The notes under the pieces were generated by a model. It was given only the letters and a program-made list of their open reading frames with translations. It was not told the origin of the DNA and did not search any database. DNA of 53,381 nucleotides from Utricularia gibba (Eukaryota; Streptophyta; Magnoliopsida; Lamiales; Lentibulariaceae): assembly GCA_002189035.1 (NCBI GenBank), contig NEEC01000244.1:1-53381 (forward strand), written 5' to 3'. Shown one piece after another: positions 15,601 to 53,381 of this stretch. The position numbers were made by a program, and so were the translations under genes. The number at the start of each line of letters is the position of its first letter. Position 1 is the first letter of the stretch.

Positions 15601-15655
15601 AGCTTTTCCTTCAGAAACCATGTAGGCAGCTGCCGAAAACCCAACGTTAATAAAT

Positions 15656-15942
15656 GGATCACTTTTTTTGCCGGGCTACAAATGACTATGGGCCCGAGCC
15701 GACGACCTCCGGCCCGATCCTAGTGCCCCTCGAGAGCGCCTCCTCAAATAAAAAGCATGTGGAGAGACCATCCTTTCAATAAATGCATCACGATTTTCGT
15801 CGAATAGGACCCGATTGGGCTCAGGAGTCGAACAGAACCTTGGGTCCGGATGAACTTCCCAACGAAAGCACCCACCCAAAAACGACAAGCTTTTCCTTCA
15901 GAAACAATGTAGGCAGCTGCCGAAAACCCAACGTTAATAAAT
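15656..15942 (+). repeat. Monomer with internal deletion (287 bp)
   Basis: Between about 15760 and 15782 the sequence runs AGCATGTGGAGAGACCATCC then TTTCAATAAATGC. Most of TTGAGAAAACCATTTGGGG and TGCTCATGACATCCTAAC has been lost or compressed. The rest of the monomer is normal. It is a private deletion, not seen elsewhere in the array. Confidence 0.8.
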
Positions 15943-30000: not shown

Positions 30001-30849
30001 AGCGCCTCCTCAAATATAAAAGCTTGTGGACAAGAAAACCATTTGGGGTGCTCATGACATCCTAACTTCAAAAAAATGCATCACGATTTTCGTCGAATAG
30101 GACCCCATTGGGCTCAGGAGTCGAACAGAACCTTGGGTCCGGATGAATTCCCAACGAAAGCACCTCCAAAAACGACAAGCTTTTCCTTCAGAAACCATGT
30201 AGGCAGCTGCCGAAAACCCAACGTTAATAAATGGATCACTTTTTTTGCCGGGCTACAAATGACTATGGGCCCGAGTTCGACCCGACCTCCGGCCAGATCC
30301 TAGTGCCCCTCGAGAGCGCCTCCTCAAATAAAAAGCTTGTGGTTGAGAAAAACCATTTGGGGTGCTCATGACATCCTAACTTCAAAAAATGCATCACGAT
30401 TTTCGTCGAATAGGACCCGATTGGGCTCAGGAGTCGAACGAACCTTGGGTCCGGACGAACTTCCCAACGAAAGCACCCCAAAAACGACAAGCTTTTCCTT
30501 CAGAAACAATGTAGGCAGCTGCCGAAAACCCAACGTTAATAAATGGATCACTTTTTTTGCCGGGCTACAAATGACTATGGGCCCGAGCCGACCCGACCTC
30601 CGGCCGATCCTAGTGCCCCTCGAGAGCGCCTCCTCAAATAAAGCTTGTGGAGAAAACCATTTGGGGTGCTCATGACATCCTAACTTCAAAAAATGCATCA
30701 CGATTTTCGTCGAATAGGACCCGATTGGGCTCAGGAGTCGAACCGAACCTTGGGTCCGGACGAAGTTCCAAACAAAGCACACCCAAAAACGACAAGCTTT
30801 TCCTTCAGAAACCATGTAGGCAGCTGCCGAAAACCCAACGTTAATAAAT

Positions 30850-31132
30850 GGATCACTTTTTTGCCGGGCTACAAATGACTATGGGCCCGAGCCCGACCCG
30901 ACCTCCGGCCCGATCCTGGTGCCCTCGAGAGCGCCTCCTCAAATATAAAGCTTGTGGATGAGAAAACCATTTGGGGTGCTCATGACATCCTAACTTCAAA
31001 AATGCATCACGATTTTCGTCGAATAGGACCGGAGGGTCGAACGAAGTCCCGAATGAAAGCACCCACCAAAAACGACAAGCTTTTCCTTCAGAAACCATGT
31101 AGGCAGCTGCCGAAAACCCAACGTTAATAAAT
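30850..31132 (+). repeat. Deleted-subtype monomer (283 bp)
   Basis: After CGAATAGGACC the sequence reads GGAGGGTCGAACGAAGTCCC near 31030. The CTCAGGAGTC-to-TTGGGTCC region is missing. Breakpoints differ from the later deleted copies, and the monomer carries the GATGAG box. Confidence 0.8.
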
Positions 31133-32025
31133 GGATCACTTTTTTTGCCGGGCTACAAATGACTATGGGCCCGAGTTCGACCGACCTCCGGCCGATCCTA
31201 GTGCCCCTCGAGAGCGCCTCCTCAAATAAAAAGCTTGTGGTTGAGAAAACCATTTGGGGTGCTCATGACATCCTAACTTCAAAAATGCATCACGATTTTC
31301 GTCGAATAGGACCCGATTGGGCTCAGGAGTCGAACCGAACCTTGGGTCCGGACGAACTTCCAACAAAGCACCACCCAAAAACGACAAGCTTTTCCTTCAG
31401 AAACCATGTAGGCAGCTGCCGAAAACCCAACGTTAATAAATGGATCACTTTTTTGCCGGGCTACAAATGACTATGGGCCCGAGCGACCCGACTCCGGCCG
31501 ATCCTAGTGCCCTCGAGAGCGCCTCCTCAAATAAAAAGCATGTGGTGAGAAAACCATTTGGGGTGCTCATGACATCCTAACTTCAAAAAATGCATCACGA
31601 TTTTCGTCGAATAGGACCGATTGGGCTCAGGAGTCGAACCGAACCTTGGGTCCGGACGAAGTTCCCAACGAAAGCACCCACCCAAAAACGACAAGCTTTC
31701 CTTCAGAAACCATGTAGGCAGCTGCCGAAAACCCAACGTTAATAAATGGATCACTTTTTTTGCCGGGCTACAAATGACTATGGGCCCGAGCGACCCGACC
31801 TCCGGCCCGATCCTAGTGCCCCTCGAGAGCGCCTCCTCAAATAAAAAGCTTGTGGTTGAGAAAACCATTTGGGGTGCTCATGACATCCTAACTTCAAAAA
31901 AATGCATCACGATTTTCGTCGAATAGGACCCGATTGGGCTCAGGAGTCGAACCGAACTTGGGTCCGGACGAATTCCCAACAAAGCACCCACCAAAAACGA
32001 CAAGCTTTTCCTTCAGAAACCATGT

Positions 32026-32072
32026 AGGCGAAAACCCAACGTTAAAAATGGATCACTTTTTTGCCGGGCTAA
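32026..32072 (+). repeat. Cluster of small lesions across a monomer junction
   Basis: GTAGGCGAAAACCC has lost seven bases of the GGCAGCTGCC palindrome, probably by deletion between GGC/GC repeats. Just after, TTAAAAATGG replaces TTAATAAATGG and GGGCTAAAATGAC replaces GGGCTACAAATGAC. The normally invariant tail is damaged only here and in a few other single copies. Confidence 0.75.
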
Positions 32073-33280
32073 AATGACTATGGGCCGAGCCCGACCGACC
32101 TCCGGCCCGATCCTAGTGCCCCTCGAGAGCGCCTCCTCAAATATAAAGCTTGTGGAGAAAACCATTTGGGGTGCTCATGACATCCTAACTTCAAAAATGC
32201 ATCACGATTTTCGTCGAATAGGACCCCATTGGGCTCAGGAGTCGAACCGAACCTTGGGTCCGGACGAATTCCCAACAAAAGCACCCACCCAAAAACGACA
32301 AGCTTTTCCTTCAGAAACATGTAGGCAGCTGCCGAAAACCCAACGTTAATAAATGGATCACTTTTTTTGCCGGGCTACAAATGACTATGGGCCCGAGTTC
32401 GACCGACCTCCGGCCCGATCCTAGTGCCCCTCGAGAGCGCCTCCTCAAATAAAAAGCTTGTGTTGAGAAAACCATTTGGGGTGCTCATGACATCCTAACT
32501 TCAAAAATGCATCACGATTTTCGTCGAATAGGACCCGATTGGGCTCAGGAGTCGAACGAACCTTGGGTCCGGACGAACTTCCAACAAAAGCACCCACCCA
32601 AAAACGACAAGCTTTTCCTTCAGAAACCATGTAGGCAGTGCCGAAAACCCAACGTTAATAAATGGATCACTTTTTTTGCCGGGCTACAAATGACTATGGG
32701 CCCGAGCCCGACCGACCTCCGGCCCGATCCTGGTGCCCCTCGAGAGCGCCTCCTCAAATAAAGCTTGTGGACAAGAAAACCATTTGGGGTGCTCATGACA
32801 TCCTAACTTCAAAAAATGCATCACGATTTTCGTCGAATAGGACCCATTGGGCTCAGGAGTCGAACGAACCTTGGGTCCGGATGAACTTCCAACGAAAGCA
32901 CCACCCAAAACGACAAGCTTTTCCTTCAGAAACCATGTAGGCAGCTGCCGAAAACCCAACGTTAATAAATGGATCACTTTTTTTGCCGGGCTACAAATGA
33001 CTATGGGCCCGAGTTCGACCCGACCTCCGGCCGATCCTAGTGCCCCTCGAGAGCGCCTCCTCAAATATAAAGCTTGTGGACAAGAAAACCATTTGGGGTG
33101 CTCATGACATCCTAACTTCAAAAAATGCATCACGATTTTCGTCGAATAGGACCCGATTGGGCTCAGGAGTCGAACCGAACCTTGGGTCGGACGAACTTCC
33201 AACAAAGCACCCACCAAAAACGACAAGCTTTTCCTTCAGAAACCATGTAGGCAGCTGCCGAAAACCCAACGTTAATAAAT

Positions 33281-33566
33281 GGATCACTTTTTTTGCCGGG
33301 CTACAAATGACTATGGGCCCGAGCCCGACCCGACCTCCGGCCCGATCCTGGTGCCCTCGAGAGCGCCTCCTCAAATATAAAGCTTGTGGATGAGAAAACC
33401 ATTTGGGGTGCTCATGACATCCTAACTTCAAAAATGCATCACGATTTTCGTCGAATAGGACCCGATTGGGTCGAACGAACTTTCCCAACGAAAGCACCAC
33501 CAAAAACGACAAGCTTTTCCTTCAGAAACCATGTAGGCAGCTGCCGAAAACCCAACGTTAATAAAT
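33281..33566 (+). repeat. Deleted-subtype monomer (286 bp)
   Basis: Near 33465 the sequence reads CGATTGGGTCGAACGAACTT then TCCCAACG. The B-box segment is lost. The GATGAG box is present. Confidence 0.82.
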
Positions 33567-36333
33567 GGATCACTTTTTTTGCCGGGCTACAAATGACTAT
33601 GGGCCCGAGTTCGACCCGACCTCCGGCCGATCCTAGTGCCCCTCGAGAGCGCCTCCTCAAATATAAAGCTTGTGAGAAAACCATTTGGGGTGCTCATGAC
33701 ATCCTAACTTCAAAAAATGCATCACGATTTTCGTCGAATAGGACCCGATTGGGCTCAGGAGTCGAACGAACCTTGGGTCCGGATGAAATTTCCAACGAAA
33801 GCACCCACCCAAAAACGACAAGCTTTTCCTTCAGAAACATGTAGGCAGCTGCCGAAAACCCAACGTTAATAAATGGATCACTTTTTTTGCCGGGCTACAA
33901 ATGACTATGGGCCCGAGCCGACCCGACCTCCGGCCCGATCCTAGTGCCCCTCGAGAGCGCCTCCTCAAATATAAAGCTTGTGGAGAAAACCATTTGGGGT
34001 GCTCATGACATCCTAACTTCAAAAATGCATCACGATTTTTCGTCGAATAGGACCCCGATTGGGCTCAGGAGTCGAACCGAACCTTGGGTCCGGACGAATT
34101 CCCAACGAAAGCACCCACCCAAAAACGACAAGCTTTTCCTTCAGAAACATGTAGGCAGCTGCCGAAAACCCAACGTTAATAAATGGATCACTTTTTTTGC
34201 CGGGCTACAAATGACTATGGGCCGAGCCCGACCCGACCTCCGGCCGATCCTAGTGCCCCTCGAGAGCGCCTCCTCAAATATAAAGCTTGTGAGAAAACCA
34301 TTTGGGTGCTCATGACATCCTAACTTCAAAAATGCATCACGATTTTCGTCGAATAGGACCCGATTGGGCTCAGGAGTCGAACCGAACCTTGGGTCCGGAC
34401 GAATTCCAACGAAAGCACCCACCCAAAAACGACAAGCTTTTCCTTCAGAAACCATGTAGGCAGCTGCCGAAAACCCAACGTTAATAAATGGATCACTTTT
34501 TTGCCGGGCTACAAATGACTATGGGCCCGAGCCCGACCGACCTCCGGCCCGATCCTGGTGCCCCTCGAGAGCGCCTCCTCAAATATAAAGCTTGTGGATG
34601 AGAAAACCATTTGGGGTGCTCATGACATCCTAACTTCAAAAATGCATCACGATTTTCGTCGAATAGGACCGATTGGGCTCAGGAGTCGAACCGAACCTTG
34701 GGTCCGGACGAATTTCCAACAAAGCACCCACCCAAAAACGACAAGCTTTTCCTTCAGAAACCATGTAGGCAGCTGCCGAAAACCCAACGTTAATAAATGG
34801 ATCACTTTTTTTGCCGGGCTACAAATGACTATGGGCCGAGCCCGACCGACCTCCGGCCCGATCCTAGTGCCCCTCGAGAGCGCCTCCTCAAATATAAAGC
34901 TTGTGGACAAGAAAACCATTTGGGGTGCTCATGACATCCTAACTTCAAAAAATGCATCACGATTTTCGTCGAATAGGACCCGATTGGGCTCAGGAGTCGA
35001 ACCGAACCTTGGGTCGACTTCCCAACAAAAGCACCCACCCAAAAACGACAAGCTTTTCCTTCAGAAACCATGTAGGCAGCTGCCGAAAACCCAACGTTAA
35101 TAAATGGATCACTTTTTTTGCCGGGCTACAAATGACTATGGGCCGAGCGACCGACCTCCGGCCGATCCTAGTGCCCTCGAGAGCGCCTCCTCAAATAAAA
35201 AGCTTGTGGTTGAGAAAACCATTTGGGGTGCTCATGACATCCTAACTTCAAAAAATGCATCACGATTTTCGTCGAATAGGACCCGATTGGGCTCAGGAGT
35301 CGAACCGAACCTTGGGTCCGGACGAACTTCCCAAAAAGCACCACCCAAAAACGACAAGCTTTTCCTTCAAACCATGTAGGCAGCTGCCGAAAACCCAACG
35401 TTAATAAATGGATCACTTTTTTTGCCGGGCTACAAATGACTATGGGCCCGAGCCCGACCCGACCTCCGGCCCGATCCTGGTGCCCCTCGAGAGCGCCTCC
35501 TCAAATATAAAGCTTGTGGAGAAAACCATTTGGGGTGCTCATGACATCCTAACTTCAAAAAATGCATCACGATTTTCGTCGAATAGGACCCATTGGGCTC
35601 AGGAGTCGAAGAACCTTGGGTCCGGATGAATTCCCAACGAAAGCACCCACCCAAAAACGACAAGCTTTTCCTTCAGAAACATGTAGGCAGCTGCCGAAAA
35701 CCCAACGTTAATAAATGGATCACTTTTTTTGCCGGGCTACAAATGACTATGGGCCCGAGCCCGACCCGACCTCCGGCCCGATCCTAGTGCCCCTCGAGAG
35801 CGCCTCCTCAAATATAAAGCTTGTGGAGAAAACCATTTGGGGTGCTCATGACATCCTAACTTCAAAAAATGCATCACGATTTTCGTCGAATAGGACCCAT
35901 TGGGCTCAGGAGTCGAACGAACCTTGGGTCCGGATGAACTTCCCAACAGCACCCACCCAAAAACGACAAGCTTTTCCTTCAGAAACCATGTAGGCAGCTG
36001 CCGAAAACCCAACGTTAATAAATGGATCACTTTTTTTGCCGGGCTACAAATGACTATGGGCCGAGTTCGACCCGACCTCCGGCCGATCCTAGTGCCCCTC
36101 GAGAGCGCCTCCTCAAATATAAAGCTTGTGGACAAGAAAACCATTTGGGGTGCTCATGACATCCTAACTTCAAAAAATGCATCACGATTTTCGTCGAATA
36201 GGACCCGATTGGGCTCAGGAGTCGAACCGAACCTTGGGTCCGGACGAAGTTCCAACAAAGCACCACCCAAAAACGACAAGCTTTTCCTTCAGAAACCATG
36301 TAGGCAGCTGCCGAAAACCCAACGTTAATAAAT

Positions 36334-36615
36334 GGATCACTTTTTTTGCCGGGCTACAAATGACTATGGGCCGAGCCCGACCCGACCTCCGGCCCGATCC
36401 GGTGCCCCTCGAGAGCGCCTCCTCAAATATAAAGCTTGTGGATGAGAAAACCATTTGGGGTGCTCATGACATCCTAACTTCAAAAATGCATCACGATTTT
36501 CGTCGAATAGGACCGATTGGTCCGAACGAAGTTCCCAACAAAGCACCACCAAAAACGACAAGCTTTTCCTTCAGAAACCATGTAGGCAGCTGCCGAAAAC
36601 CCAACGTTAATAAAT
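36334..36615 (+). repeat. Deleted-subtype monomer (282 bp)
   Basis: Near 36515 the sequence reads GGACCGATTGGTCCGAACGA then AGTTCCC. This is the first copy with the TCCGAACGAAG junction that is shared with the monomers at 39979, 41193 and 43865. It has the GATGAG and GATCCGGTGCC markers. Confidence 0.85.
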
Positions 36616-38774
36616 GGATCACTTTTTTTGCCGGGCTACAAATGACTATGGGCCCGACGACTGACCTCCGGCCGATCCTAGTGCCCCTCGAGAGCGCCTC
36701 CTCAAATATAAAGCTTGTGGTGAGAAAACCATTTGGGGTGCTCATGACATCCTAACTTCAAAAAATGCATCACGATTTTCGTCGAATAGGACCCGATTGG
36801 GCTCAGGAGGAGTCGAACCGAACCTTGGGTCCGGACGAATTCCAACAAAGCACCCACCCAAAAACGACAAGCTTTTCCTTCAGAAACCATGTAGGCAGCT
36901 GCCGAAAACCCAACGTTAATAAATGGATCACTTTTTTTGCCGGGCTACAAATGACTATGGGCCCGAGTTCGACCGACCTCCGGCCGATCCTAGTGCCCCT
37001 CGAGCGCCTCCTCAAATAAAAAGCTTGTGGTGAGAAAACCATTTGGGTGCTCATGACATCCTAACTTCAATAAATGCATCACGATTTTCGTCGAATAGGA
37101 CCGATTGGGCTCAGGAGTCGAACCGAACCTTGGGTCCGGACGAATTCCCAACGAAAGCACCCACCAAAAACGACAAGCTTTTCCTTCAGAAACCATGTAG
37201 GCAGCTGCCGAAAACCCAACGTTAATAAATGGATCACTTTTTTTGCCGGGCTACAAATGACTATGGGCCCGAGCCGACGACCTCCGGCCCGATCCTAGTG
37301 CCCCTCGAGAGCGCCTCCTCAAATAAAAGCTTGTGGTTGAGAAAACCATTTGGGGTGCTCATGACATCCTAACTTCAAAAAATGCATCACGATTTTCGTC
37401 GAATAGGACCCGATTGGGCTCAGGAGTCGAACCGAACCTTGGGTCCGGACGAACTTCCCAACAAAGCACCCACCCAAAAACGACAAGCTTTTCCTTCAGA
37501 AACCATGTAGGCAGCTGCCGAAAACCCAACGTTAATAAATGGATCACTTTTTTTGCCGGGCTACAAATGACTATGGGCCGAGCCCGACCGACCTCCGGCC
37601 CGATCCTAGTGCCCCTCGAGAGCGCCTCCTCAAATATAAAGCTTGTGGACAAGAAAACCATTTGGGGTGCTCATGACATCCTAACTTCAAAAAATGCATC
37701 ACGATTTTCGTCGAATAGGACCCCATTGGGCTCAGGAGTCGAACCGAACCTTGGGTCCGGACGAATTCCCAACAAAAGCACCCACCCAAAAACGACAAGC
37801 TTTTCCTTCAGAAACCATGTAGGCAGCTGCCGAAAACCCAACGTTAATAAATGGATCACTTTTTTTGCCGGGCTACAAATGACTATGGGCCCGAGTTCGA
37901 GACCTCCGGCCGATCCTAGTGCCCCTCGAGAGCGCCTCCTCAAATAAAAAGCTTGTGGTTGAGAAAACCATTTGGGGTGCTCATGACATCCTAACTTCAA
38001 AAATGCATCACGATTTTCGTCGAATAGGACCCGATTGGGCTCAGGAGTCGAACCGAACCTTGGGTCCGGACGAATTCCAACAAAGCACCCACCCAAAAAC
38101 GACAAGCTTTTCCTTCAGAAACCATGTAGGCAGCTGCCGAAAACCCAACGTTAATAAATGGATCACTTTTTTGCCGGGCTACAAATGACTATGGGCCGAG
38201 CCCGACCGACCTCCGGCCCGATCCTGTGCCCCTCGAGAGCGCCTCCTCAAATATAAAGCTTGTGGACAAGAAAACCATTTGGGGTGCTCATGACATCCTA
38301 ACTTCAAAAATGCATCACGATTTTCGTCGAATAGGACCCCATTGGGCTCAGGAGTCGAACGAACCTTGGGTCCGGATGAACTTCCCAACGAAAGCACCCA
38401 CCCAAAAACGACAAGCTTTTCCTTCAGAAACATGTAGGCAGCTGCCGAAAACCCAACGTTAATAAATGGATCATTTTTTTGCCGGGCTACAAATGACTAT
38501 GGGCCCGACGACCGACCTCCGGCCGATCCTAGTGCCCCTCGAGAGCGCCTCCTCAAATATAAAGCTTGTGGACAAGAAAACCATTTGGGGTGCTCATGAC
38601 ATCCTAACTTCAAAAAATGCATCACGATTTTCGTCGAATAGGACCCGATTGGGCTCAGGAGTCGAACGAACCTTGGGTCCGGATGAACTTCCCAACAAAG
38701 CACCCACCCAAAAACGACAAGCTTTTCCTTCAGAAACCATGTAGGCAGCTGCCGAAAACCCAACGTTAATAAAT

Positions 38775-39978
38775 GGATCACTTTTTTTGCCGGGCTACAA
38801 ATGACTATGGGCCGAGCCCGACCCGACCTCCGGCCCGATCCTAGTGCCCTCGAGAGCGCCTCCTCAAATATAAAGCTTGTGGTGAGAAAACCATTTGGGG
38901 TGCTCATGACATCCTAACTTCAAAAATGCATCACGATTTTCGTCGAATAGGACCCGTCGAACGAATCCCAACGAAAGCACCCACCCAAAAACGACAAGCT
39001 TTTCCTTCAGAAACCATGTAGGCAGCTGCCGAAAACCCAACGTTAATAAATGGATCACTTTTTTTGCCGGGCTACAAAATGACTATGGGCCCGAGTTCGA
39101 CCCGACCTCCGGCCGATCCTAGTGCCCCTCGAGAGCGCCTCCTCAAATATAAAGCTTGTGGACAGAAAACCATTTGGGGTGCTCATGACATCCTAACTTC
39201 AAAAAATGCATCACGATTTTCGTCGAATAGGACCCCGATTGGGCTCAGGAGTCGAACGAACCTTGGTCCGATGAACTTCCCAACGAAAGCACCCACCCAA
39301 AAACGACAAGCTTTTCCTTCAGAAACAATGTAGGCAGCTGCCGAAAACCCAACGTTAATAAATGGATCATTTTTTTGCCGGGCTACAAATGACTATGGGC
39401 CGAGTTCGACCCGACCTCCGGCCGATCCTAGTGCCCCTCGAGAGCGCCTCCTCAAATATAAAGCTTGTGGACAAGAAAACCATTTGGGGTGCTCATGACA
39501 TCCTAACTTCAAAAAATGCATCACGATTTTCGTCGAATAGGACCCCGATTGGGCTCAGGAGTCGAACCGAACCTTGGGTCCGGACGAATTCCCAACAAAA
39601 GCACCACCCAAAAACGACAAGCTTTTCCTTCAGAAAATGTAGGCAGCTGCCGAAAACCCAACGTTAATAAATGGATCACTTTTTTTGCCGGGCTACAAAT
39701 GACTATGGGCCGAGCCGACCGACCTCCGGCCCGATCCTAGTGCCCCTCGAGAGCGCCTCCTCAAATATAAAGTTGTGGACAAGAAAACCATTTGGGGTGC
39801 TCATGACATCCTAACTTCAAAAAATGCACGATTTTCGTCGAATAGGACCCGATTGGCTCAGGAGTCGAACCGAACCTTGGGTCCGGACGAACTTCCCAAC
39901 AAAGCACCCACCCAAAAACGACAAGCTTTTCCTTCAGAAACCATGTAGGCAGCTGCCGAAAACCCAACGTTAATAAAT
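38775..39978 (+). repeat. Tetrameric higher-order repeat unit 1 (1204 bp)
   Basis: It starts with a deleted monomer (277 bp; GACCCGTCGAACGAATCCC near 38951), followed by three full-length monomers with GACAG or GACAAG boxes. Two of these have GACCCCGATTGGG. Its deletion junction differs from that of the next units. Confidence 0.6.
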
Positions 39979-41192
39979 GGATCACTTTTTTTGCCGGGCT
40001 ACAAATGACTATGGGCCCGAGCCCGACCCGACCTCCGGCCCGATCCGGTGCCCTCGAGAGCGCCTCCTCAAATATAAAGCTTGTGGATGAGAAAACCATT
40101 TGGGGTGCTCATGACATCCTAACTTCAATAAATGCATCACGATTTTCGTCGAATAGGACCCGGATTGGGTCCGAACGAAGTTCCCAATGAAAGCACCACC
40201 AAAAACGACAAGCTTTTCCTTCAGAAACCATGTAGGCAGCTGCCGAAAACCCAACGTTAATAAATGGATCACTTTTTTTGCCGGGCTACAAATGACTATG
40301 GGCCCGAGTTCGACCCGACCTCCGGCCGATCCTAGTGCCCCTCGAGAGCGCCTCCTCAAATATAAAGCTTGTGGAGAAAACCATTTGGGGTGCTCATGAC
40401 ATCCTAACTTCAAAAAATGCATCACGATTTTCGTCGAATAGGACCCCGATTGGGCTCAGGAGTCGAACCGAACCTTGGGTCCGGACGAATTCCCAACGAA
40501 AGCACCCACCCAAAAACGACAAGCTTTTCCTTCAGAAACCATGTAGGCAGCTGCCGAAAACCCAACGTTAATAAATGGATCACTTTTTTTGCCGGGCTAC
40601 AAATGACTATGGGCCCGAGCCCGACCCGACCTCCGGCCGATCCTAGTGCCCCTCGAGAGCGCCTCCTCAAATATAAAGCTTGTGGACAAGAAAACCATTT
40701 GGGGTGCTCATGACATCCTAACTTCAAAAAATGCATCACGATTTTCGTCGAATAGGACCCCATTGGGCTCAGGAGTCGAACGAACCTTGGGTCCGGATGA
40801 ATTCCCAACGAAAGCACCACCCAAAAACGACAAGCTTTCCTTCAGAAACATGTAGGCAGCTGCCGAAAACCCAACGTTAATAAATGGATCACTTTTTTTG
40901 CCGGGCTACAAATGACTATGGGCCGAGCCCGACCCGACCTCCGGCCGATCCTAGTGCCCCTCGAGAGCGCCTCCTCAAATAAAAGCTTGTGGACAAGAAA
41001 ACCATTTGGGGTGCTCATGACATCCTAACTTCAAAAATGCATCACGATTTTCGTCGAATAGGACCCGATTGGGCTCAGGAGTCGAACCGAACCTTGGGTC
41101 CGGACGAACTTCCCAAAGCACCCACCCAAAAACGACAAGCTTTTCCTTCAGAAACCATGTAGGCAGCTGCCGAAAACCCAACGTTAATAAAT
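39979..41192 (+). repeat. Tetrameric higher-order repeat unit 2 (1214 bp)
   Basis: Order: deleted monomer with GATGAG (287 bp; GATTGGGTCCGAACGAAG near 40162, unusual CAATAAATGC), then a GAGAA monomer, then two GACAAG monomers. The deletion start and the GATGAG, GAGAA, GACAAG sequence define the register. Confidence 0.72.
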
Positions 41193-42389
41193 GGATCACT
41201 TTTTTGCCGGGCTACAAATGACTATGGGCCCGAGCCGACCCGACCTCCGGCCCGATCCTAGTGCCCCTCGAGAGCGCCTCCTCAAATATAAAGCTTGTGG
41301 ATGAGAAAACCATTTGGGGTGCTCATGACATCCTAACTTCAAAAATGCATCACGATTTTCGTCGAATAGGACCGATTGGGTCCGAACGAAGTTCCCAAAA
41401 AGCACCACCAAAAACGACAAGCTTTTCCTTCAGAAACCATGTAGGCAGCTGCCGAAAACCCAACGTTAATAAATGGATCACTTTTTTGCCGGGCTACAAA
41501 TGACTATGGGCCGAGGACCGACCTCCGGCCCGATCCTAGTGCCCCTCGAGAGCGCCTCCTCAAATATAAAGCTTGTGGAGAAAACCATTTGGGGTGCTCA
41601 TGACATCCTAACTTCAAAAATGCATCACGATTTTCGTCGAATAGGACCCGATTGGGCTCAGGAGTCGAACGAACCTTGGGTCCGGATGAATTTCCCAACG
41701 AAAGCACCCACCAAAAACGACAAGCTTTTCCTTCAGAAACCATGTAGGCAGCTGCCGAAAACCCAACGTTAATAAATGGATCTTTTTTTGCCGGGCTACA
41801 AATGACTATGGGCCCGAGCCCGACCGACCTCCGGCCGATCCTAGTGCCCCTCGAGAGCGCCTCCTCAAATATAAAGCTTGTGGACAAGAAAACCATTTGG
41901 GGTGCTCATGACATCCTAACTTCAAAAATGCATCACGATTTTCGTCGAATAGGACCCGATTGGGCTCAGGAGTCGAACGAACCTTGGGTCCGGATGAACT
42001 TCCCAACGAAAGCACCCACCAAAAACGACAAGCTTTTCCTTCAGAAACCATGTAGGCAGCTGCCGAAAACCCAACGTTAATAAATGGATCATTTTTTTGC
42101 CGGGCTACAAATGACTATGGGCCGAGTTCGACCGACCTCCGGCCGATCCTAGTGCCCCTCGAGAGCGCCTCCTCAAATATAAAGCTTGTGGAGAAAACCA
42201 TTTGGGGTGCTCATGACATCCTAACTTCAAAAATGCATCACGATTTTCGTCGAATAGGACCCGATTGGGCTCAGGAGTCGAACCGAACCTTGGGTCCGGA
42301 CGAATTCCAACAAAGCACCCACCCAAAAACGACAAGCTTTTCCTTCAGAAACCATGTAGGCAGCTGCCGAAAACCCAACGTTAATAAAT
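41193..42389 (+). repeat. Tetrameric higher-order repeat unit 3 (1197 bp)
   Basis: Order: deleted GATGAG monomer (282 bp; GATTGGGTCCGAACGAAG near 41373), GAGAA monomer, GACAAG monomer (T-tract shortened to GGATCTTTTTTTGCC), GAGAA monomer (GGATCATTTTTTTG). Confidence 0.72.
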
Positions 42390-43279
42390 GGATCACTTTT
42401 TTTGCCGGGCTACAAATGACTATGGGCCCGAGCCCGACCCGACCTCCGGCCCGATCCGGTGCCCTCGAGCGCCTCCTCAAATATAAAGCTTGTGGATGAG
42501 AAAACCATTTGGGTGCTCATGACATCCTAACTTCAAAATGCATCACGATTTTCGTCGAATAGGACCGATTGGGTCGAACGAAGTTCCCAACGAAAGCACC
42601 CACCAAAAACGACAAGCTTTTCCTTCAGAAACCATGTAGGCAGCTGCCGAAAACCCAACGTTAATAAATGGATCACTTTTTTTGCCGGGCTACAAATGAC
42701 TATGGGCCGAGCCCGACCCGACCTCCGGCCGATCCTAGTGCCCCTCGAGAGCGCCTCCTCAAAATAAAGCTTGTGGAGAAAACCATTTGGGTGCTCATGA
42801 CATCCTAACTTCAAAAAATGCATCACGATTTTCGTCGAATAGGACCCATTGGCTCAGGAGTCGAACCGAACCTTGGGTCCGGACGAATTCCAACAAAGCA
42901 CCCACCCAAAAACGACAAGCTTTTCCTTCAGAAACATGTAGGCAGCTGCCGAAAACCCAACGTTAATAAATGGATCACTTTTTTGCCGGGCTACAAATGA
43001 CTATGGGCCCGAGCCGACCCGACCTCCGGCCGATCCTGGTGCCCCTCGAGAGCGCCTCCTCAAATATAAAGCTTGTGGACAAGAAAACCATTTGGGTGCT
43101 CATGACATCCTAACTTCAAAAAATGCATCACGATTTTCGTCGAATAGGACCCCATTGGGCTCAGGAGTCGAACCGAACCTTGGGTCCGGATGAATTCCCA
43201 ACGAAAGCACCCACCCAAAAACGACAAGCTTTTCCTTCAGAAACCATGTAGGCAGCTGCCGAACCCAACGTTAATAAAT
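42390..43279 (+). repeat. Tetrameric-type unit reduced to three monomers (890 bp)
   Basis: Order: deleted GATGAG monomer (280 bp; GATTGGGTCGAACGAAG near 42567), GAGAA monomer, GACAAG monomer. The fourth monomer is missing. Confidence 0.68.
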
Positions 43280-43864
43280 GGATCACTTTTTTGCCGGGCT
43301 ACAAATGACTATGGGCCGAGCCCGACCCGACCTCCGGCCCGATCCGTGCCCCTCGAGAGCGCCTCCTCAAATATAAAGCTTGTGGATGAGAAAACCATTT
43401 GGGGTGCTCATGACATCCTAACTTCAAAAATGCATCACGATTTTCGTCGAATAGGACCGATTGGGCCGAACGAAGTTCCAAAAAGCACCCCCAAAAACGA
43501 CAAGCTTTTCCTTCAGAAACCATGTAGGCAGCTGCCGAAAACCCAACGTTAATAAATGGATCACTTTTTTTGCCGGGCTACAAATGACTATGGGCCGAGC
43601 GACCGACCTCCGGCCCGATCCTAGTGCCCCTCGAGAGCGCCTCCTCAAATATAAAGCTTGTGGAGAAAACCATTTGGGGTGCTCATGACATCCTAACTTC
43701 AAAAAATGCATCACGATTTTCGTCGAATAGGACCCGATTGGGCTCAGGAGTCGAACCGAACCTTGGGTCCGGACGAATTCCCAACAAAAGCACCCACCCA
43801 AAAACGACAAGCTTTTCCTTCAGAAACCATGTAGGCAGCTGCCGAAAACCCAACGTTAATAAAT
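43280..43864 (+). repeat. Tetrameric-type unit reduced to two monomers (585 bp)
   Basis: Order: deleted GATGAG monomer (278 bp; GATTGGGCCGAACGAAG near 43459), GAGAA monomer. The next monomer is already another deleted copy. Confidence 0.68.
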
Positions 43865-44151
43865 GGATCACTTTTTTTGCCGGGCTACAAATGACTATGG
43901 GCCCGAGCCCGACCCGACCTCCGGCCCGATCCTGGTGCCCCTCGAGAGCGCCTCCTCAAATATAAAGCTTGTGGACAAGAAAACCATTTGGGGTGCTCAT
44001 GACATCCTAACTTCAAAAAATGCATCACGATTTTCGTCGAATAGGACCCATTGGGTCCGAACGAAGGCTCCCAAAAAGCACCCACCAAAAACGACAAGCT
44101 TTTCCTTCAGAAACCATGTAGGCAGCTGCCGAAAACCCAACGTTAATAAAT
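43865..44151 (+). repeat. Deleted-subtype monomer (287 bp), last copy
   Basis: Near 44049 the sequence reads CATTGGGTCCGAACGAAGGC then TCCCAAAAAGC. It shares the TCCGAACGAAG junction but sits on a CCCATTGGG / GACAAG background rather than CGATTGGG / GATGAG. This suggests the deletion was moved onto another subtype by gene conversion or exchange. Confidence 0.78.
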
Positions 44152-44457
44152 GGATCACTTTTTTGCCGGGCTACAAATGACTATGGGCCCGAGCCCGACC
44201 CGACCTCCGGCCCGATCCTAGTGCCCTCGAGAGCGCCTCCTCAAATATAAAGCTTGTGGACAGAAAACCATTTGGGGTGCCATGACATCCTAACTTCAAA
44301 AATGCATCACGATTTTCGTCGAATAGGACCCATTGGGCTCAGGAGTCGAACCGACCTTGGGTCCGGACGAATTCCCAACAAAGCACCCACCCAAAAACGA
44401 CAAGCTTTTCCTTCAGAAACCATGTAGGCAGCTGCCGAAAACCCAACGTTAATAAAT

Positions 44458-44808
44458 GGATCACTTTTTTTGCCGGGCTACAAATGACTATGGGCCGAGC
44501 CCGACCTACACCTCCGGCCCGACTATGGGCCCCGATCCGAGACCGACCTCCTCAAATATAAAGCCTTGTGCCCTCGAGAATCCTCCTCAAATATAAAGCT
44601 TGTGGACAAGAAAACCATTTGGGGTGCTCATGACATCCTAACTTCAAAAAATGCATCACGATTTTCGTCGAATAGGACCCCATTGGGCTCAGGAGTCGAA
44701 CCGAACCTTGGTCCGGACGAATTCCCAACAAAAGCACCCACCCAAAAACGACAAGCTTTTCCTTCAGAAACCATGTAGGCAGCTGCCGAAAACCCAACGT
44801 TAATAAAT
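44458..44808 (+). repeat. Monomer with scrambled internal duplication (351 bp)
   Basis: Between about 44502 and 44605 the GC block and the HindIII stretch are partly repeated: CCCGACCTACACC, then a second CCCGACTATGGGCCCC, GAGACCGACCTCC, and two copies of CTCCTCAAATATAAAGC, the first followed by CTTGTGCCCTCGAG. It looks like a template-switch or slipped-repair product. The second half of the monomer is normal. Confidence 0.85.
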
Positions 44809-45419
44809 GGATCACTTTTTTTGCCGGGCTACAAATGACTATGGGCCGAGCCGACCCGACCTCCGGCCGATCCTGGTGCCCCTCGAGAGCGCCTCCTCAA
44901 ATATAAAGCTTGTGGAAAGAAAACCATTTGGGGTGCTCATGACATCCTAACTTCAAAAAATGCATCACGATTTTCGTCGAATAGGACCCATTGGGCTCAG
45001 GAGTCGAACCGAACCTTGGGTCCGGATGAATTCCAACAAAGCACCCACCCAAAAACGACAAGCTTTTCCTTCAGAAACCATGTAGGCAGCTGCCGAAAAC
45101 CCAACGTTAATAAATGGATCACTTTTTTGCCGGGCTACAAATGACTATGGGCCGAGCCCGACCTGACCTCCGGCCCGATCCTGGTGCCCCTCGAGAGCGC
45201 CTCCTCAAATATAAAGCTTGTGGAGAGAAAACCATTTGGGGTGCTCATGACATCCTAACTTCAAAAATGCATCACGATTTTCGTCGAATAGGACCCGATT
45301 GGGCTCAGGAGTCGAACGAACCTTGGGTCCGGACTTCCAACAAAGCACCCACCCAAAAACGACAAGCTTTTCCTTCAGAAACCATGTAGGCAGCTGCCGA
45401 AAACCCAACGTTAATAAAT

Positions 45420-45668
45420 GGATCACTTTTTTTGCCGGGCTACAAATGACTATGGGCCCGAGCCCGACCGACCTCCGGCCCGATCCTAGTGCCCCTCGAG
45501 AGCGCCTCCTCAAATATAAAGCTTGTGGAGAAAACCATTTGGGGTGCTCATGACATCCTAACTTCAAAAAATGATTTTCGTCGAAATAGGACCCGATTGG
45601 GCGGATTTTCGGATCGAATTTTCCTTCAGAAACATGTAGGCAGTGCCGAAAACCCAACGTTAATAAAT
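45420..45668 (+). repeat. Truncated, degenerate monomer (249 bp)
   Basis: ATGCATCACG is reduced to ATG before ATTTTCG, and TCGAAATAGG has an extra A. From CTCAGGAGTC to CGACAAGC everything is replaced by GGATTTTCGGATCGAAT. The conserved tail then resumes at TTTTCCTTCAG, with CAGTGCC in place of CAGCTGCC. Confidence 0.85.
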
Positions 45669-45897
45669 GGATCATTTTTTTGCCGGGCTACAAATGACTA
45701 TGGGGCCGAGTTCGAACCGGCCGATCCTACCTTGGGTTTGGGTGCCATGACATCCTAACTTCAAAAATGCATCACGATTTTCGTCGAATAGGACCCCATT
45801 GGGCCAACGAACAACCTTGCACGAATCCCCAAAAAAACGACAAGCTTTTCCTTCAGAAACCATGTAGGCAGCTGCCGAAAACCCAACGTTAATAAAT
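45669..45897 (+). repeat. Truncated, degenerate monomer (229 bp)
   Basis: After GATCCTA the XhoI, HindIII and diagnostic-box region is missing, replaced by CCTTGGGTTTGGGTGC. CATGACATCC then resumes. The B-box segment is also absent: GGGCCAACGAACAACCTTGC, ACGAATCCCC. The tail is intact. This is the shortest monomer in the window. Confidence 0.85.
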
Positions 45898-46825
45898 GGA
45901 TCACTTTTTTGCCGGGCTACAAATGACTATGGGCCCGAGCCCGACCGACCTCCGGCCCGATCCTGGTGCCCCTCGAGAGCGCCTCCTCAAATATAAAGCT
46001 TGTGGATGAGAAAACCATTTGGGGTGCTCATGACATCCTAACTTCAATAAATGCATCACGATTTTCGTCGAATAGGACCCGATTGGGCTCAGGAGTCGAA
46101 CGAACCTTGGGTCCGGATGAACTTCCAACAAAGCACCCACCCAAAAACGACAAGCTTTTCCTTCAGAAACATGTAGGCAGCTGCCGAAAACCCAACGTTA
46201 ATAAATGGATCACTTTTTTTGCCGGGCTACAAATGACTATGGGCCCGAGTTCGACCGACCTCCGGCCGATCCTAGTGCCCCTCGAGAGCGCCTCCTCAAA
46301 TAAAAAGCTGTGGTTGAGAAAACCATTTGGGGTGCTCATGACATCCTAACTTCAAAAAAATGCATCACGATTTTCGTCGAATAGGACCCGATTGGGCTCA
46401 GGAGTCGAACCGAACCTTGGGTCCGGACGAATTCCCAAAAAGCACCCACCCAAAAACGACAAGCTTTTCCTTCAGAAACCATGTAGGCAGCTGCCGAAAA
46501 CCCAACGTTAATAAATGGATCACTTTTTTTGCCGGGCTACAAATGACTATGGGCCCGAGTCGATGACCTCCGGCCCGATCCTAGTGCCCCTCGAGAGCGC
46601 CTCCTCAAATAAAAAGCTTGTGTTGAGAAAACCATTTGGGGTGCTCATGACATCCTAACTTCAAAAAATGCATCACGATTTTCGTCGAATAGGACCCGAT
46701 TGGGCTCAGGAGTCGAACCGAACCTTGGGTCCGGACGAAGTTCCAACAAAGCACCCACCCAAAAACGACAAGCTTTTCCTTCAGAAACCATGTAGGCAGC
46801 TGCCGAAAACCCAACGTTAATAAAT

Positions 46826-49800
46826 GGATCACTTTTTTGCCGGGCTACAAATGACTATGGGGCCGAGCCCGACCTGACCTCCGGCCCGATCCTAGTGCCC
46901 CTCGAGAGCGCCTCCTCAAATATAAAGCTTGTGGAGAAAACCATTTGGGTGCTCATGACATCCTAACTTCAAAAAATGCATCACGATTTTCGTCGAATAG
47001 GACCCCATTGGGCTCAGGAGTCGAACCGAACCTTGGGTCCGGACGAAGTTCCCAACAAAAGCACCCACCCAAAAACGACAAGCTTTTCCTTCAGAAACCA
47101 TGTAGGCAGCTGCCGAAAACCCAACGTTAATAAATGGATCACTTTTTTTGCCGGGCTACAAATGACTATGGGCCCGAGCCCGACCGACCTCCGGCCCGAT
47201 CCGTGCCCCTCGAGAGCGCCTCCTCAAATATAAAGCTTGTGGATGAGAAAACCATTTGGGGTGCTCATGACATCCTAACTTCAATAAATGCATCACGATT
47301 TTCGTCGAATAGGACCCGATTGGCTCAGGAGTCGAACGAACCTTGGGTCCGGATGAACTTCCCAACAAAGCACCCACCCAAAAACGACAAGCTTTTCCTT
47401 CAGAAACATGTAGGCAGCTGCCGAAAACCCAACGTTAATAAATGGATCACTTTTTTTGCCGGGCTACAAATGACTATGGGCCCGAGTTCGACCCGACCTC
47501 CGGCCGATCCTAGTGCCCCTCGAGAGCGCCTCCTCAAATAAAAGCTTGTGGAGAAAACCATTTGGGTGCTCATGACATCCTAACTTCAAAAAATGCATCA
47601 CGATTTTCGTCGAATAGGACCCATTGGGCTCAGGAGTCGAACCGAACCTTGGGTCCGGACGAAGTTCCCAACAAAGCACCCACCCAAAAACGACAAGCTT
47701 TTCCTTCAGAAACCATGTAGGCAGCTGCCGAAAACCCAACGTTAATAAATGGATCACTTTTTTTGCCGGGCTACAAATGACTATGGGCCGAGCCCGACCT
47801 GACCTCCGGCCCGATCCCGGTGCCCCTCGAGAGCGCCTCCTCAAATATAAAGCTTGTGGATGAGAAAACCATTTGGGGTGCTCATGACATCCTAACTTCA
47901 AAAATGCATCACGATTTTCGTCGAATAGGACCCGATTGGGCTCAGGAGTCGAACGAACCTTGGGTCCGGATGAACTTCCCAACAAAGCACCCACCCAAAA
48001 ACGACAAGCTTTTCCTTCAGAAACATGTAGGCAGCTGCCGAAAACCCAACGTTAATAAATGGATCACTTTTTTTGCCGGCTACAAATGACTATGGGCCCG
48101 AGTTCGACCCGACCTCCGGCCGATCCTAGTGCCCTCGAGAGCGCCTCCTCAAATAAAAGCTTGTGGTTGAGAAAACCATTTGGGGTGCTCATGACATCCT
48201 AACTTCAAAAATGCATCACGATTTTCGTCGAATAGGACCCGATTGGGCTCAGGAGTCGAACCGAACCTTGGGTCCGGACGAAGTTCCCAAAAAGCACCCA
48301 CCCAAAAACGACAAGCTTTTCCTTCAGAAACCATGTAGGCAGCTGCCGAAAACCCAACGTTAATAAATGGATCACTTTTTTTGCCGGGCTACAAATGACT
48401 ATGGGCCCGAGATCGATATGACCTCCGGCCCGATCCTAGTGCCCCTCGAGAGCGCCTCCTCAAATAAAAAGCTTGTGGTTGAGAAAACCATTTGGGGTGC
48501 TCATGACATCCTAACTTCAAAAAATGCATCACGATTTTCGTCGAATAGGACCCGATTGGGCTCAGGAGTCGAACCGAACCTTGGGTCCGGACGAATTCCC
48601 AACAAAAGCACCCACCCAAAAACGACAAGCTTTTCCTTCAGAAACCATGTAGGCAGCTGCCGAAAACCCAACGTTAATAAATGGATCACTTTTTTTGCCG
48701 GGCTACAAATGACTATGGGCCCGAGCCCGACCCGACCTCCGGCCCGATCCTGGTGCCCCTCGAGAGCGCCTCCTCAAATATAAAGCTTGTGGATGAGAAA
48801 ACCATTTGGGGTGCTCATGACATCCTAACTTCAAAAATGCATCACGATTTTCGTCGAATAGGACCCGATTGGGCTCAGGAGTCGAACCGAACCTTGGGTC
48901 CGGACGAATTCCAACAACAGCACCCACCCAAAAACGACAAGCTTTTCCTTCAGAAACCATGTAGGCAGCTGCCGAAAACCCAACGTTAATAAATGGATCA
49001 CTTTTTTTGCCGGGCTACAAATGACTATGGGGCCGAGCCCGACCTGACCTCCGGCCCGATCCTAGTGCCCCTCGAGAGCGCCTCCTCAAATATAAAGCTT
49101 GTGGAAGAAAACCATTTGGGTGCTCATGACATCCTAACTTCAAAAAATGCATCACGATTTTCGTCGAATAGGACCCCATTGGGCTCAGAGTCGAACCGAA
49201 CCTTGGGTCCGGACGAATTCCCAACAAAAGCACCCCCCAAAAACGACAAGCTTTTCCTTCAGAAACCATGTAGGCAGCTGCCGAAAACCCAACGTTAATA
49301 AATGGATCACTTTTTTTGCCGGGCTACAAATGACTATGGGCCCGAGCCCGACCCGACCTCCGGCCCGATCCTGGTGCCCCTCGAGAGCGCCTCCTCAAAT
49401 ATAAAGCTTGTGGATGAGAAAACCATTTGGGGTGCTCATGACATCCTAACTTCAAAAATGCATCACGATTTCGTCGAATAGGACCCGATTGGGCTCAGGA
49501 GTCGAACCGAACCTTGGGTCCGGACGAACCAACAAAGCACCCACCAAAAACGACAAGCTTTTCCTTCAGAAACCATGTGGCAGCTGCCGAAAACCCAACG
49601 TTAATAAATGGATCACTTTTTTTGCCGGGCTACAAATGACTATGGGCCCGAGTTCGATGACCTCCGGCCCGATCCTAGTGCCCCTCGAGAGCGCCTCCTC
49701 AAATAAAAGCTTGTGGTTGAGAAAACCATTTGGGTGCTCATGACATCCTAACTTCAAAAAATGCATCACGATTTTCGTCGAATAGGACCCGATTGGCTCA

Positions 49801-49916
49801 GGAGTCGAACCGAACCTTGGGTCCGGACGAATTCCCAACAAAGCACCCCCCAAAAACGACAAGCTTTTCCTTCAGAAACCATGTAGGCAGCTGCCGAAAA
49901 CCCAACGTTAATAAAT
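46826..49916 (+). repeat. Decameric higher-order repeat unit 1 (3091 bp)
   Basis: Ten monomers, with boxes in order GAGAA, GATGAG, GAGAA, GATGAG, TTGAG, TTGAG, GATGAG, GAAGAA, GATGAG, TTGAG. Monomers 1 and 8 share GGGGCCGAGCCCGACCTG and CCCCATTGGG. Monomers 2 and 4 share GAACGAACC and GATGAACTTCCCAACAAAGC. Each position has its best marker match ten monomers later. Confidence 0.68.
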
Positions 49917-52900
49917 GGATCACATTTTTTGCCGGGCTACAAATGACTATGGGGCCGAGCCCGACCGACCTCGGCCCGATCCTAGTGCCCCTCGAGAGCG
50001 CCTCCTCAAATATAAAGCTTGTGGACAAGAAAACCATTTGGGTGCTCATGACATCCTAACTTCAAAAAATGCATCACGATTTTCGTCGAATAGGACCCCA
50101 TTGGGCTCAGGAGTCGAACCGAACCTTGGGTCCGGACGAAGTTCCCAACAAAAGCACCCACCCAAAAACGACAAGCTTTTCCTTCAGAAACCATGTAGGC
50201 AGCTGCCGAAAACCCAACGTTAATAAATGGATCACTTTTTTGCCGGGCTACAAATGACTATGGGCCCGAGCCCGACCGACCTCCGGCCCGATCCTAGTGC
50301 CCCTCGAGAGCGCCTCCTCAAATATAAAGCTTGTGGATGAGAAAACCATTTGGGTGCTCATGACATCCTAACTTCAAAAATGCATCACGATTTTCGTCGA
50401 ATAGGACCCGATGGGCTCAGGAGTCGAACGAACCTTGGGTCCGGACGAACTTCCCAACAAAGCACCCACCCAAAAACGACAAGCTTTTCCTTCAGAAACC
50501 ATGTAGGCAGCTGCCGAAAACCCAACGTTAATAAATGGATCACTTTTTTGCCGGGCTACAAATGACTATGGCCCGAGTTCGACCCGACCTCCGCCGATCC
50601 TAGTGCCCCTCGAGAGCGCCTCCTCAAATATAAAGCTTGTGGAGAAAACCATTTGGGTGCTCATGACATCCTAACTTCAATAAATGCATCACGATTTTCG
50701 TCGAATAGGACCCGATTGGCTCAGGAGTCGAACCGAACCTTGGTCCGGACGAACTTCCCAACAAAAGCACCCACCCAAAAACGACAAGCTTTTCCTTCAG
50801 AAACCATGTAGGCAGCTGCCGAAAAACCCAACGTTAATAAATGGATCACTTTTTTTTGCCGGGCTACAAATGACTATGGGCCCGAGCCCGACCTGACCTC
50901 CGGCCCGATCCTAGTGCCCCTCGAGAGCGCCTCCTCAAATATAAAGCTTGTGGATGAGAAAACCATTTGGGGTGCTCATGACATCCTAACTTAAAAATGC
51001 ATCACGATTTTCGTCGAATAGGACCCGATTGGCTCAGGAGTCGAACGAACCTTGGGTCCGGATGAATTCCAACAAAGCACCCACCCAAAAACGACAAGCT
51101 TTTCCTTCAGAAACCATGTAGGCAGCTGCCGAAAACCCAACGTTAATAAATGGATCACTTTTTTGCCGGGCTACAAATGACTATGGGCCCGAGTTCGACC
51201 CGACCTCCGGCCAGATCCTAGTGCCCCTCGAGAGCGCCTCCTCAAATAAAAAGCTTGTGGTTGAGAAAACCATTTGGGGTGCTCATGACATCCTAACTTC
51301 AAAAATGCATCACGATTTTCGTCGAATAGGACCGATTGGGCTCAGGAGTCGAACCGAACCTTGGGTCCGGACGAAGTTCCCAACAACAGCACCCCACCCA
51401 AAAACGACAAGCTTTTCCTTCAGAAACCATGTAGGCAGCTGCCGAAAACCCAACGTTAATAAATGGATCACTTTTTTTGCCGGGCTACAAATGACTATGG
51501 GCCCGAGCCGACGACCTCCGGCCCGATCCTAGTGCCCCTCGAGAGCGCCTCCTCAAATAAAAGCATGTGGTTGAGAAAACCATTTGGGGTGCTCATGACA
51601 TCCTAACTTCAAAAAATGCATCACGATTTTCGTCGAATAGGACCCGATTGGGCTCAGGAGTCGAACCGAAACTTGGGTCCGGACGAAGTTCCCAACAAAA
51701 GCACCCACCCAAAAACGACAAGCTTTTCCTTCAGAAACCATGTAGGCAGGTGCCGAAAACCCAACGTTAATAAATGGATCACTTTTTTTGCCGGGCTACA
51801 AATGACTATGGGCCGAGCCCGACCCGACCTCCGGCCCGATCCTGGTGCCCTCGAGAGCGCCTCCTCAAATATAAAGCTTGTGGACAAGAAAACCATTTGG
51901 GGTGCTCATGACATCCTAACTTCAAAAAATGCATCACGATTTTCGTCGAATAGGACCCATTGGGCTCAGGAGTCGAACAGAACCTTGGGTCCGGACGAAC
52001 TTCCAACAAAGCACCCACCCAAAACGACAAGCTTTTCCTTCAGAACCATGTAGGCAGCTGCCGAAAACCCAACGTTTATAAATGGATCACTTTTTTTGCC
52101 GGGCTACAAATGACTATGGGGCCGAGCCCGACCTGACCTCCGGCCCGATCCTAGTGCCCCTCGAGAGCGCCTCCTCAAATATAAAGCTTGTGGACAAGAA
52201 AACCATTTGGGGTGCTCATGACATCCTAACTTCAAAAAATGCATCACGATTTTCGTCGAATAGGACCCCATTGGCTCAGGAGTCGAACCGAACCTTGGGT
52301 CCGGACGAAGTTCCCAACAAAAAAGCACCCACCCAAAAACGACAAGCTTTTCCTTCAGAAACCATGTAGGCAGCTGCCGAAAACCCAACGTTAATAAATG
52401 GATCACTTTTTTTGCCGGGCTACAAATGACTATGGGCCCGAGCCCGACCGACCTCCGGCCCGATCCTAGTGCCCCTCGAGAGCGCCTCCTCAAATATAAA
52501 GCTTGTGGATGAGAAAACCATTTGGGGTGCTCATGACATCCTAACTTCAAAAAATGCATCACGATTTTCGTCGAATAGGACCCATTGGGCTCAGGAGTCG
52601 AACCGAACCTTGGGTCCGGACGAATTCCAACAACAGCACCCACCCAAAAACGACAAGCTTTTCCTTCAGAAACCATGTAGGCAGCTGCCGAAAACCCAAC
52701 GTTAATAATGGATCACTTTTTTTGCCGGGCTACAAATGACTATGGGCCCGAGTCGACCTGACCTCCGGCCCGATCCTAGTGCCCCTCGAGAGCGCCTCCT
52801 CAAATAAAAAGCATGTGGTTGAGAAAACCATTTGGGTGCTCATGACATCCTAACTTCAAAAAATGCATCACGATTTTCGTCGAATAGGACCCGATTGGGC

Positions 52901-53019
52901 TCAGGAGTCGAACCGAACCTTGGGTCCGGACGAATTCCAACAACAGCACCCACCCAAAAACGACAAGCTTTTCCTTCAGAAACCATGTAGGCAGTGCCGA
53001 AAACCCAACGTTAATAAAT
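49917..53019 (+). repeat. Decameric higher-order repeat unit 2 (3103 bp)
   Basis: Boxes run GACAAG, GATGAG, GAGAA, GATGAG, TTGAG, TTGAG, GACAAG, GACAAG, GATGAG, TTGAG. Positions 2-6, 9 and 10 have the same box as unit 1. Positions 1, 7 and 8 differ in the box but mostly keep other markers, for example GGGGCCGAGCC with CCCCATTGGG at 1 and 8, and CCTGGTGCC at 7. A third unit starts at 53020 with the expected GGGGCCGAGCC / CCCATTGGG monomer. Confidence 0.68.
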
Positions 53020-53328
53020 GGATCACTTTTTTTGCCGGGCTACAAATGACTATGGGGCCGAGCCCGACCTGACCTCCGGCCGATCCTAGTGCCCCTCGAG
53101 AGCGCCTCCTCAAATATAAAGCTTGTGGACAAGAAAACCATTTGGGGTGCCATGACATCCTAACTTCAAAAAATGCATCACGATTTTCGTCGAATAGGAC
53201 CCATTGGGCTCAAGAGTCGAACCGAACCTTGGGTCCGGACGAATTCCAACAAAAGCACCCCCCAAAAACGACAAGCTTTTCCTTCAGAAACCATGTAGGC
53301 AGCTGCCGAAAACCCAACGTTAATAAAT
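53020..53328 (+). repeat. First monomer of a third decameric unit
   Basis: It carries GGGGCCGAGCCCGACCTG, GACAAG and CCCATTGGG, matching the first monomers at 46826 and 49917. It has GGGGTGCCATGAC (CT lost) and CTCAAGAGTCGAACC, a G-to-A change next to the B-box. Confidence 0.7.
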
Positions 53329-53381
53329 GGATCACTTTTTTTGCCGGGCTACAAATGACTATGGGCCCGAGCCCGACCCGA
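53329..53381 (+). repeat. Partial monomer, right edge of window
   Basis: The first 53 bp of a monomer: intact anchor, T-tract and the start of the CCCGA block (GAGCCCGACCCGA). The array continues past the window. By the decamer register this should be a GATGAG-class monomer. Confidence 0.9.

What the first reader, a model, noticed from the sequence alone, without database searches (positions are those of the whole stretch)
46826..53328. Decameric higher-order repeat of ~3.1 kb in the right-hand domain
GGGGCCGAGCC plus CCCATTGGG monomers start at 46826, 48995, 49917, 52084 and 53020, that is at monomer spacings 7, 3, 7, 3. Lining up copies ten apart matches most boxes position by position (3091 and 3103 bp). 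A ten-monomer period shows recent amplification of a large unit and differs from every other domain in the window.
Basis: seen in the sequence. Interest (0 to 1): 0.7.

Follow-up and report, generated by a model that had tools for sequence, protein, structure and literature searches.

The report
Duplicated ten-monomer block in plant satellite
Near the end of a long tandem repeat of 310-letter units in a small plant genome, a block of ten units was copied next to itself; similar block copies of other sizes occur elsewhere in the same repeat, so this looks like ordinary satellite-DNA turnover.

Summary
In 46454-53381, monomers ten apart are more alike than at any other spacing: substitution identity 0.985 against 0.970-0.980, 9.6 edits per pair against 13.1-15.6. 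Familywise permutation counts are 0, 0 and 3 of 5000 by substitutions, edits and homopolymer-compressed edits. GGGGCCGAGCC sits at monomer spacings 7,3,7,3.

About 2.2 copies lie before the contig end. They differ by about 5 substitutions per monomer, 57 of 63 at sites polymorphic in the array, and mostly fail a <=5-variant HOR rule. It is not unique: 8 of 26 tiled 22-monomer segments of four contigs (two of the 8 in this window) have their own significant lag, between 3 and 15, and C130 has a longer nine-monomer period. Simulated random block duplication gives such isolated lags.

Best reading: one tandem duplication of a ten-monomer block, later blurred by exchange (or by mixed-read consensus), in a ~310-bp satellite that is itself an old dimer. 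Centromere function is untested.

The parts
1..53381 (+). Head-to-tail ~310-bp satellite; 172 monomers by anchor, whole contig C160
   Evidence: Tandem Repeats Finder; monomer cutting; contig identity
45835..53381 (+). Right-hand domain after two odd-length monomers (m144, m147); m148-m171 plus remnant
46454..49547 (+). Block copy 1 (monomers m150-m159)
   Evidence: lag-10 pairs and type string
49548..52647 (+). Block copy 2 (monomers m160-m169); best of 700 ten-monomer blocks compared with copy 1, copy 1 itself aside (9.2 edits per monomer; next 11.4)
52648..53381 (+). Start of a third copy (m170, m171, remnant), cut by the contig end
46763..47072 (+). Marker monomer m151 (GGGGCCGAGCC, CCCCATT)
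48932..49240 (+). Marker monomer m158
49854..50165 (+). Marker monomer m161
52022..52336 (+). Marker monomer m168
52958..53265 (+). Marker monomer m171

Best explanation
A block of ten monomers (about 3.09 kb) of a ~310-bp plant satellite was copied in tandem (46454-49547 and 49548-52647, a third copy just begun at the contig end) by unequal sister-chromatid exchange or replication-associated copying. Short-tract exchange between monomers has since blurred the copies. The copy relation is shown; the recombination mechanism and the order of events are inferred. It is one of many block duplications of varied size in this satellite, not a homogenised higher-order repeat array.
For: Lag 10 is the only significant lag in the domain, by substitutions, edits and homopolymer-compressed edits. 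Left edge: type agreement is 11/12 from m150 on and 0/2 before. Of 700 ten-monomer blocks in C160, C130 and parts of C103, C240 and C37, the neighbouring copy 2 is the best match to copy 1 (9.2 edits per monomer; next 11.4; median 16.5). 57 of 63 lag-10 substitutions are between alleles common in the array, and private differences are no more frequent than in the other 219 pairs (0.50 against 0.52 per pair); linkage falls from mean r2 0.374 within 5 bp to 0.014-0.022 beyond 100 bp, as short-tract exchange would give. Other segments have other lags: 8 of 26 at <=20/2000, and lag 1 is the best lag in none of the 26. Simulation: blocks of 1-20 monomers gave 40 of 84 segments with one significant lag, all between 2 and 18; single-monomer events gave lag 1 only (53 of 84 segments).
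Against: The copies differ by 5.25 substitutions and 9.6 edits per monomer pair, so this is not a fresh duplication. Exchange and mixed-read consensus predict the same loss of linkage and cannot be told apart here: deletions are about 3 to 6 times commoner at or next to polymorphic sites than four or more bases away. 18 of 26 tiled segments have no significant lag. The simulation parameters were mine, three replicates each, and not fitted to this genome.
Confidence: 0.77

Rival explanations
1. A true decameric higher-order repeat array begins here and continues beyond the contig end; the window shows only its first 2.2 copies.
For: The third copy starts in register (m170, m171) and the contig simply ends (length). 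An assembly tends to break where a repeat is most uniform (inference).
Against: No 7-3 spacing of the GGGG marker in the 92 listed places outside this window (15 of 115 places were not listed). No block outside the window matches copy 1 better than 11.4 edits per monomer in about 186 kb compared, a part only of the satellite in this assembly. The two copies are too unlike for a homogenised array.
Confidence: 0.1
2. Assembly or consensus artefact: reads of different repeat copies were mixed or looped at the contig end.
For: The indel pattern looks like long-read consensus error (T7 run: 102 of 141 have 7, 29 have 6, 9 have 8, 1 has 5) and deletions cluster near polymorphic sites. Scrambled satellite lies at 44500-44600 and 45560-45830 and in C164 from about 22129 to at least 23000. 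The signal is at a contig end.
Against: Copies made from the same reads would agree at polymorphic sites; here 57 common-allele differences remain in 12 pairs. The signal survives homopolymer compression.
Confidence: 0.1
3. The spacing is maintained by function, for example a protein-binding box in particular monomers of a ten-monomer unit.
For: The marker monomers differ at several sites together (GGGG; CCCC and ACAAG in most).
Against: The marker occurs at 7 and 3, twice per unit. Other segments use other lags. In C164 the listed marker places lie 1 to 13 monomers apart.
Confidence: 0.03

Closest known systems
Multi-monomer HOR blocks of plant centromeric satellites as called by TRASH (Populus Palv156; Arabidopsis CEN178 for comparison)
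   Same: Blocks of consecutive, nearly identical monomers that recur in a head-to-tail satellite (passages of PMC12046899).
   Different: That paper ran TRASH with minhor 2 and maxdiv 5. The lag-10 pairs here average 9.6 edits or 5.25 substitutions and give no run of three within 5 edits. CENH3 occupancy is unknown.
Human alpha-satellite HOR arrays (recalled)
   Same: Multi-monomer unit repeated in tandem.
   Different: Only about 2.2 copies; monomers within the domain are themselves about 97.5% alike by substitutions, far more than in alpha-satellite units (recalled), and the units are not near-identical.
Centromere-associated 161-bp tandem repeat of Genlisea nigrocaulis (PMC4542322, passages)
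   Same: Abundant satellite of a very small plant genome; the half-unit here is about 155 bp.
   Different: Different unit length; its sequence was not compared; no FISH or CENH3 data here.

Membership tests
Satellite DNA | Long head-to-tail arrays of one unit | tested here: met
   172 monomers over 53 kb; 340 in C130; an exact 39-mer occurs 1167 times in the assembly
Homogenised higher-order repeat array | Unit copies more alike than monomers within the unit | tested here: met
   lag 10 0.9852 against lag 1 0.9735, 0/5000
Homogenised higher-order repeat array | Many near-identical unit copies | tested here: not met
   about 2.2 copies; 9.6 edits per pair; the second harmonic, lag 20, has only two pairs here (0.9802)
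TRASH-style HOR block | Consecutive monomer pairs with <=5 variants (I required runs of 3; the paper's setting was a minimum of 2) | tested here: inconclusive
   by edits no lag-10 run of 3; by substitutions and by homopolymer-compressed edits one run of 3 each (m150-152); runs of 2 were not counted
Centromeric satellite | CENH3 occupancy and one main array per chromosome | not testable with these tools
   no chromatin data; both sampled ends of C103, C117, C130, C146 and C164 are satellite, so these arrays are not anchored

The most novel reading that the evidence does not exclude
This satellite copies itself in a preferred step of nine to ten monomers (2.8-3.1 kb): lag 9 dominates C130 as a whole (z 8.25, 0/1000; strongest over m20-100, again m200-240, absent in m120-200 and m240-340), lag 10 appears here and in one C130 segment, and harmonics at 18 and 27 are weak, as if each block is copied from its immediate neighbour. 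Against it: other lags (3, 5, 7, 11, 15, 28) are significant elsewhere.
Probability: 0.12. Interest if true: 0.5.

Novelty: new member of a known kind. Interest (0 to 1): 0.22.

Why it matters
It shows block-wise turnover in a long satellite of a very compact plant genome, and that a marker spacing which looks like a higher-order repeat can be a single, already blurred duplication. If the plant were Utricularia gibba (not shown), these arrays would bear on a statement in print that its putative centromeric regions lack satellite repeats (PMC8333044, passage).

Tried and rejected
A whole-genome DNA search with a 575-base piece could not be scored. Rfam gave no match at gathering scores in 41000-53381. 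A 14-monomer period suggested by marker spacings 11,3,11 in C130:16452-24185 was not borne out by identity in that 10-kb stretch: lag 14 was not among its four best lags; over all of C130 lag 14 stands at 83/1000. A first run on that stretch was spoilt by a 626-bp double monomer, which I dropped. Deletions as proof of mixed-read consensus: only one isolated polymorphic column was available, so the clean version of the test had no power. The start of C37 (1-938), outside the tandem-repeat row, turned out on reading to be a diverged form of the same satellite, not a flank. Identifying the species from the organelle contig was given up: the stretches are withheld. In one search four tiles with odd-length monomers were left out (C160 from m132, C130 from m176 and m286, C37 from m0), and the right-end domain itself was not among the 26 tiles. 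In some searches the four odd-length C130 monomers were dropped (336 of 340 used).

Full report
What the window is. The window is the whole of contig C160 (53381 bp) in a 100.09-Mb, 516-contig assembly. It is a head-to-tail satellite of about 310 bp, which I cut into 172 monomers. The assembly is a plant's: an open rbcL frame of 484 aa lies on C516, and its best PDB matches are Rubisco large chains (that the top ones are land-plant chains is recalled). The species was not established. Genome size, contig sizes and a long-read-like error pattern remind me of the PacBio assembly of Utricularia gibba, but that is recall plus passages of PMC8333044 (genome ca. 100 Mb, a Unitig_8 of 6.8 Mb), not a test.

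The satellite elsewhere. An exact 39-mer of it occurs 1167 times in the assembly (716 + and 451 -). Pattern hits lie on at least C37, C103, C117, C130, C146, C160, C164, C172, C186, C189, C240 and C262 (lists capped at 100). The pieces read from C37, C103, C117, C130, C146, C164 and C240 are satellite, including both ends of C103, C117, C130, C146 and C164, with a scrambled part in C164. C37 holds a diverged subfamily. The unit itself is an old dimer: its two halves align with 102 identical of 165 columns, score 126.5 against a maximum of 89.5 in 300 simulated sequences.

The observation. GGGGCCGAGCC marks five and only five monomers of the right-hand domain, at spacings 7,3,7,3. In the 22 monomers from 46454 on, lag 10 gives 0.9852 substitution identity; the other 19 lags give 0.9704-0.9802. 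The familywise permutation count is 0/5000. By edit distance it is 9.58 against 13.10-15.62 at the other lags up to 16, by homopolymer-compressed edits 5.58 against 6.82-9.38, by substitutions 5.25 against 7.67-10.91; familywise counts are 0, 3 and 0 of 5000. Choosing the domain from 45800 weakens it to 11/5000 (substitutions) and 212/5000 (gaps counted). A segment m144-167 with two odd-length monomers shows nothing at lag 10 (1762/2000). The relation starts at m150 (46454); m148 and m149 do not fit.

How far it is a higher-order repeat. There are two copies and the start of a third. The copies differ at 63 substitution cells in 12 pairs, 57 of them between alleles common in the array. No run of three lag-10 pairs stays within 5 edits; one run of three does so by substitutions and one by homopolymer-compressed edits. 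The strongest six-pair run in the window is not this one but a lag-5 run starting at 19897 (0.9924); in the right-hand domain the best is 0.989.

It is not unique. In the window, lag 15 (1-10 kb, 5/5000) and lag 18 (30-39 kb, 51/5000) stand out, lag 5 (m48-71 and m60-83, 9/2000 and 5/2000), and lag 7 (m44-65, 1/2000). In 26 tiled segments of 22 monomers from C160 (6), C130 (13), three parts of C103 (6) and C240 (1), 8 have a significant lag at <=20/2000: 15, 7, 9, 10, 9, 9, 11 and 3; the other 18 do not; four tiles were skipped. In C130 as a whole lag 9 is best (16.67 edits against a mean of 18.57, z 8.25, 0/1000), strongest over m20-100 and again m200-240, not in m120-200 or m240-340, with a weak second harmonic (z 2.6, 224/1000) and no third; over m40-100 lag 28 is even stronger (0/2000). 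The 7-3 marker spacing does not recur among the 92 listed places outside the window (100 of 115 places listed), and copy 1's best match among 700 ten-monomer blocks, itself aside, is copy 2.

Mechanism. Variation is confined to few sites: 100 of 315 columns show neither substitution nor gap, and 20 columns hold 73% of the substitutions. Linkage between sites is nearly lost beyond 100 bp (mean r2 0.374 within 5 bp, 0.014-0.022 beyond 100 bp). A simple simulation with block duplications and deletions of 1-20 monomers, short-tract conversion and mutation gave isolated significant lags in 40 of 84 segments, all between 2 and 18; single-monomer events gave lag 1 only, in 53 of 84. In the real data lag 1 is the best lag in none of 26 segments. 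So block-wise copying plus short-tract exchange is sufficient (inferred). Mixed-read consensus is a rival for the exchange part: deletions run 9.2 per column at polymorphic sites and 6.9 next to them, against 1.6-2.1 at four bases or more.

Literature. HOR calling parameters are from passages of PMC12046899. PMC4542322 (passages) gives a 161-bp centromere-associated repeat in Genlisea nigrocaulis. PMC8333044 (passages) states that putative centromeric regions of U. gibba lack satellite repeats. PMC10663240 (passages) held nothing on satellites. The searches listed no paper whose title or abstract start describes a 310-bp satellite of this kind (two listed none at all); that is a narrow search of open papers.

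Noticed in passing
C130 (L021, L022, L007, L023-L030), monomers m20-100 and m200-240 counted on the reverse strand: A nine-monomer (about 2.8 kb) period, longer and stronger than the decamer, with weak harmonics.
   Followed up: partly
window 1-53381, consensus monomer: The ~310-bp unit is an ancient dimer of ~155-bp halves, 102 identical of 165 alignment columns.
   Followed up: yes
window 44500-44600, 45560-45830; L006 2130-3001 (C164:22129-23000): Scrambled pieces of the satellite in the right orientation but wrong order: consensus error or real decay.
   Followed up: partly
window about 30.7-44.4 kb (m99, m107, m117, m125, m129, m133, m137, m140, m142): Recurrent short monomers (276-287 bp), some four apart, near a lag-4 signal that is not significant over 39-45.6 kb (895/5000).
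   Followed up: no
L019 (C37:1-10000): Diverged satellite subfamily (314 bp): relative to the stretch 1645-1944, stretches about 5, 20 and 24 monomers away are 92-100% identical without gaps, the two next neighbours 69% and 82%.
   Followed up: partly
L020 (C240:1-10000): Strong three-monomer period (12.47 against 17.65 edits, z 5.2, 0/2000).
   Followed up: partly
G000 C2, C375, C451, C515: Eight partial rbcL-like matches, six of them with stop codons inside, probably plastid DNA inserted in other compartments.
   Followed up: no
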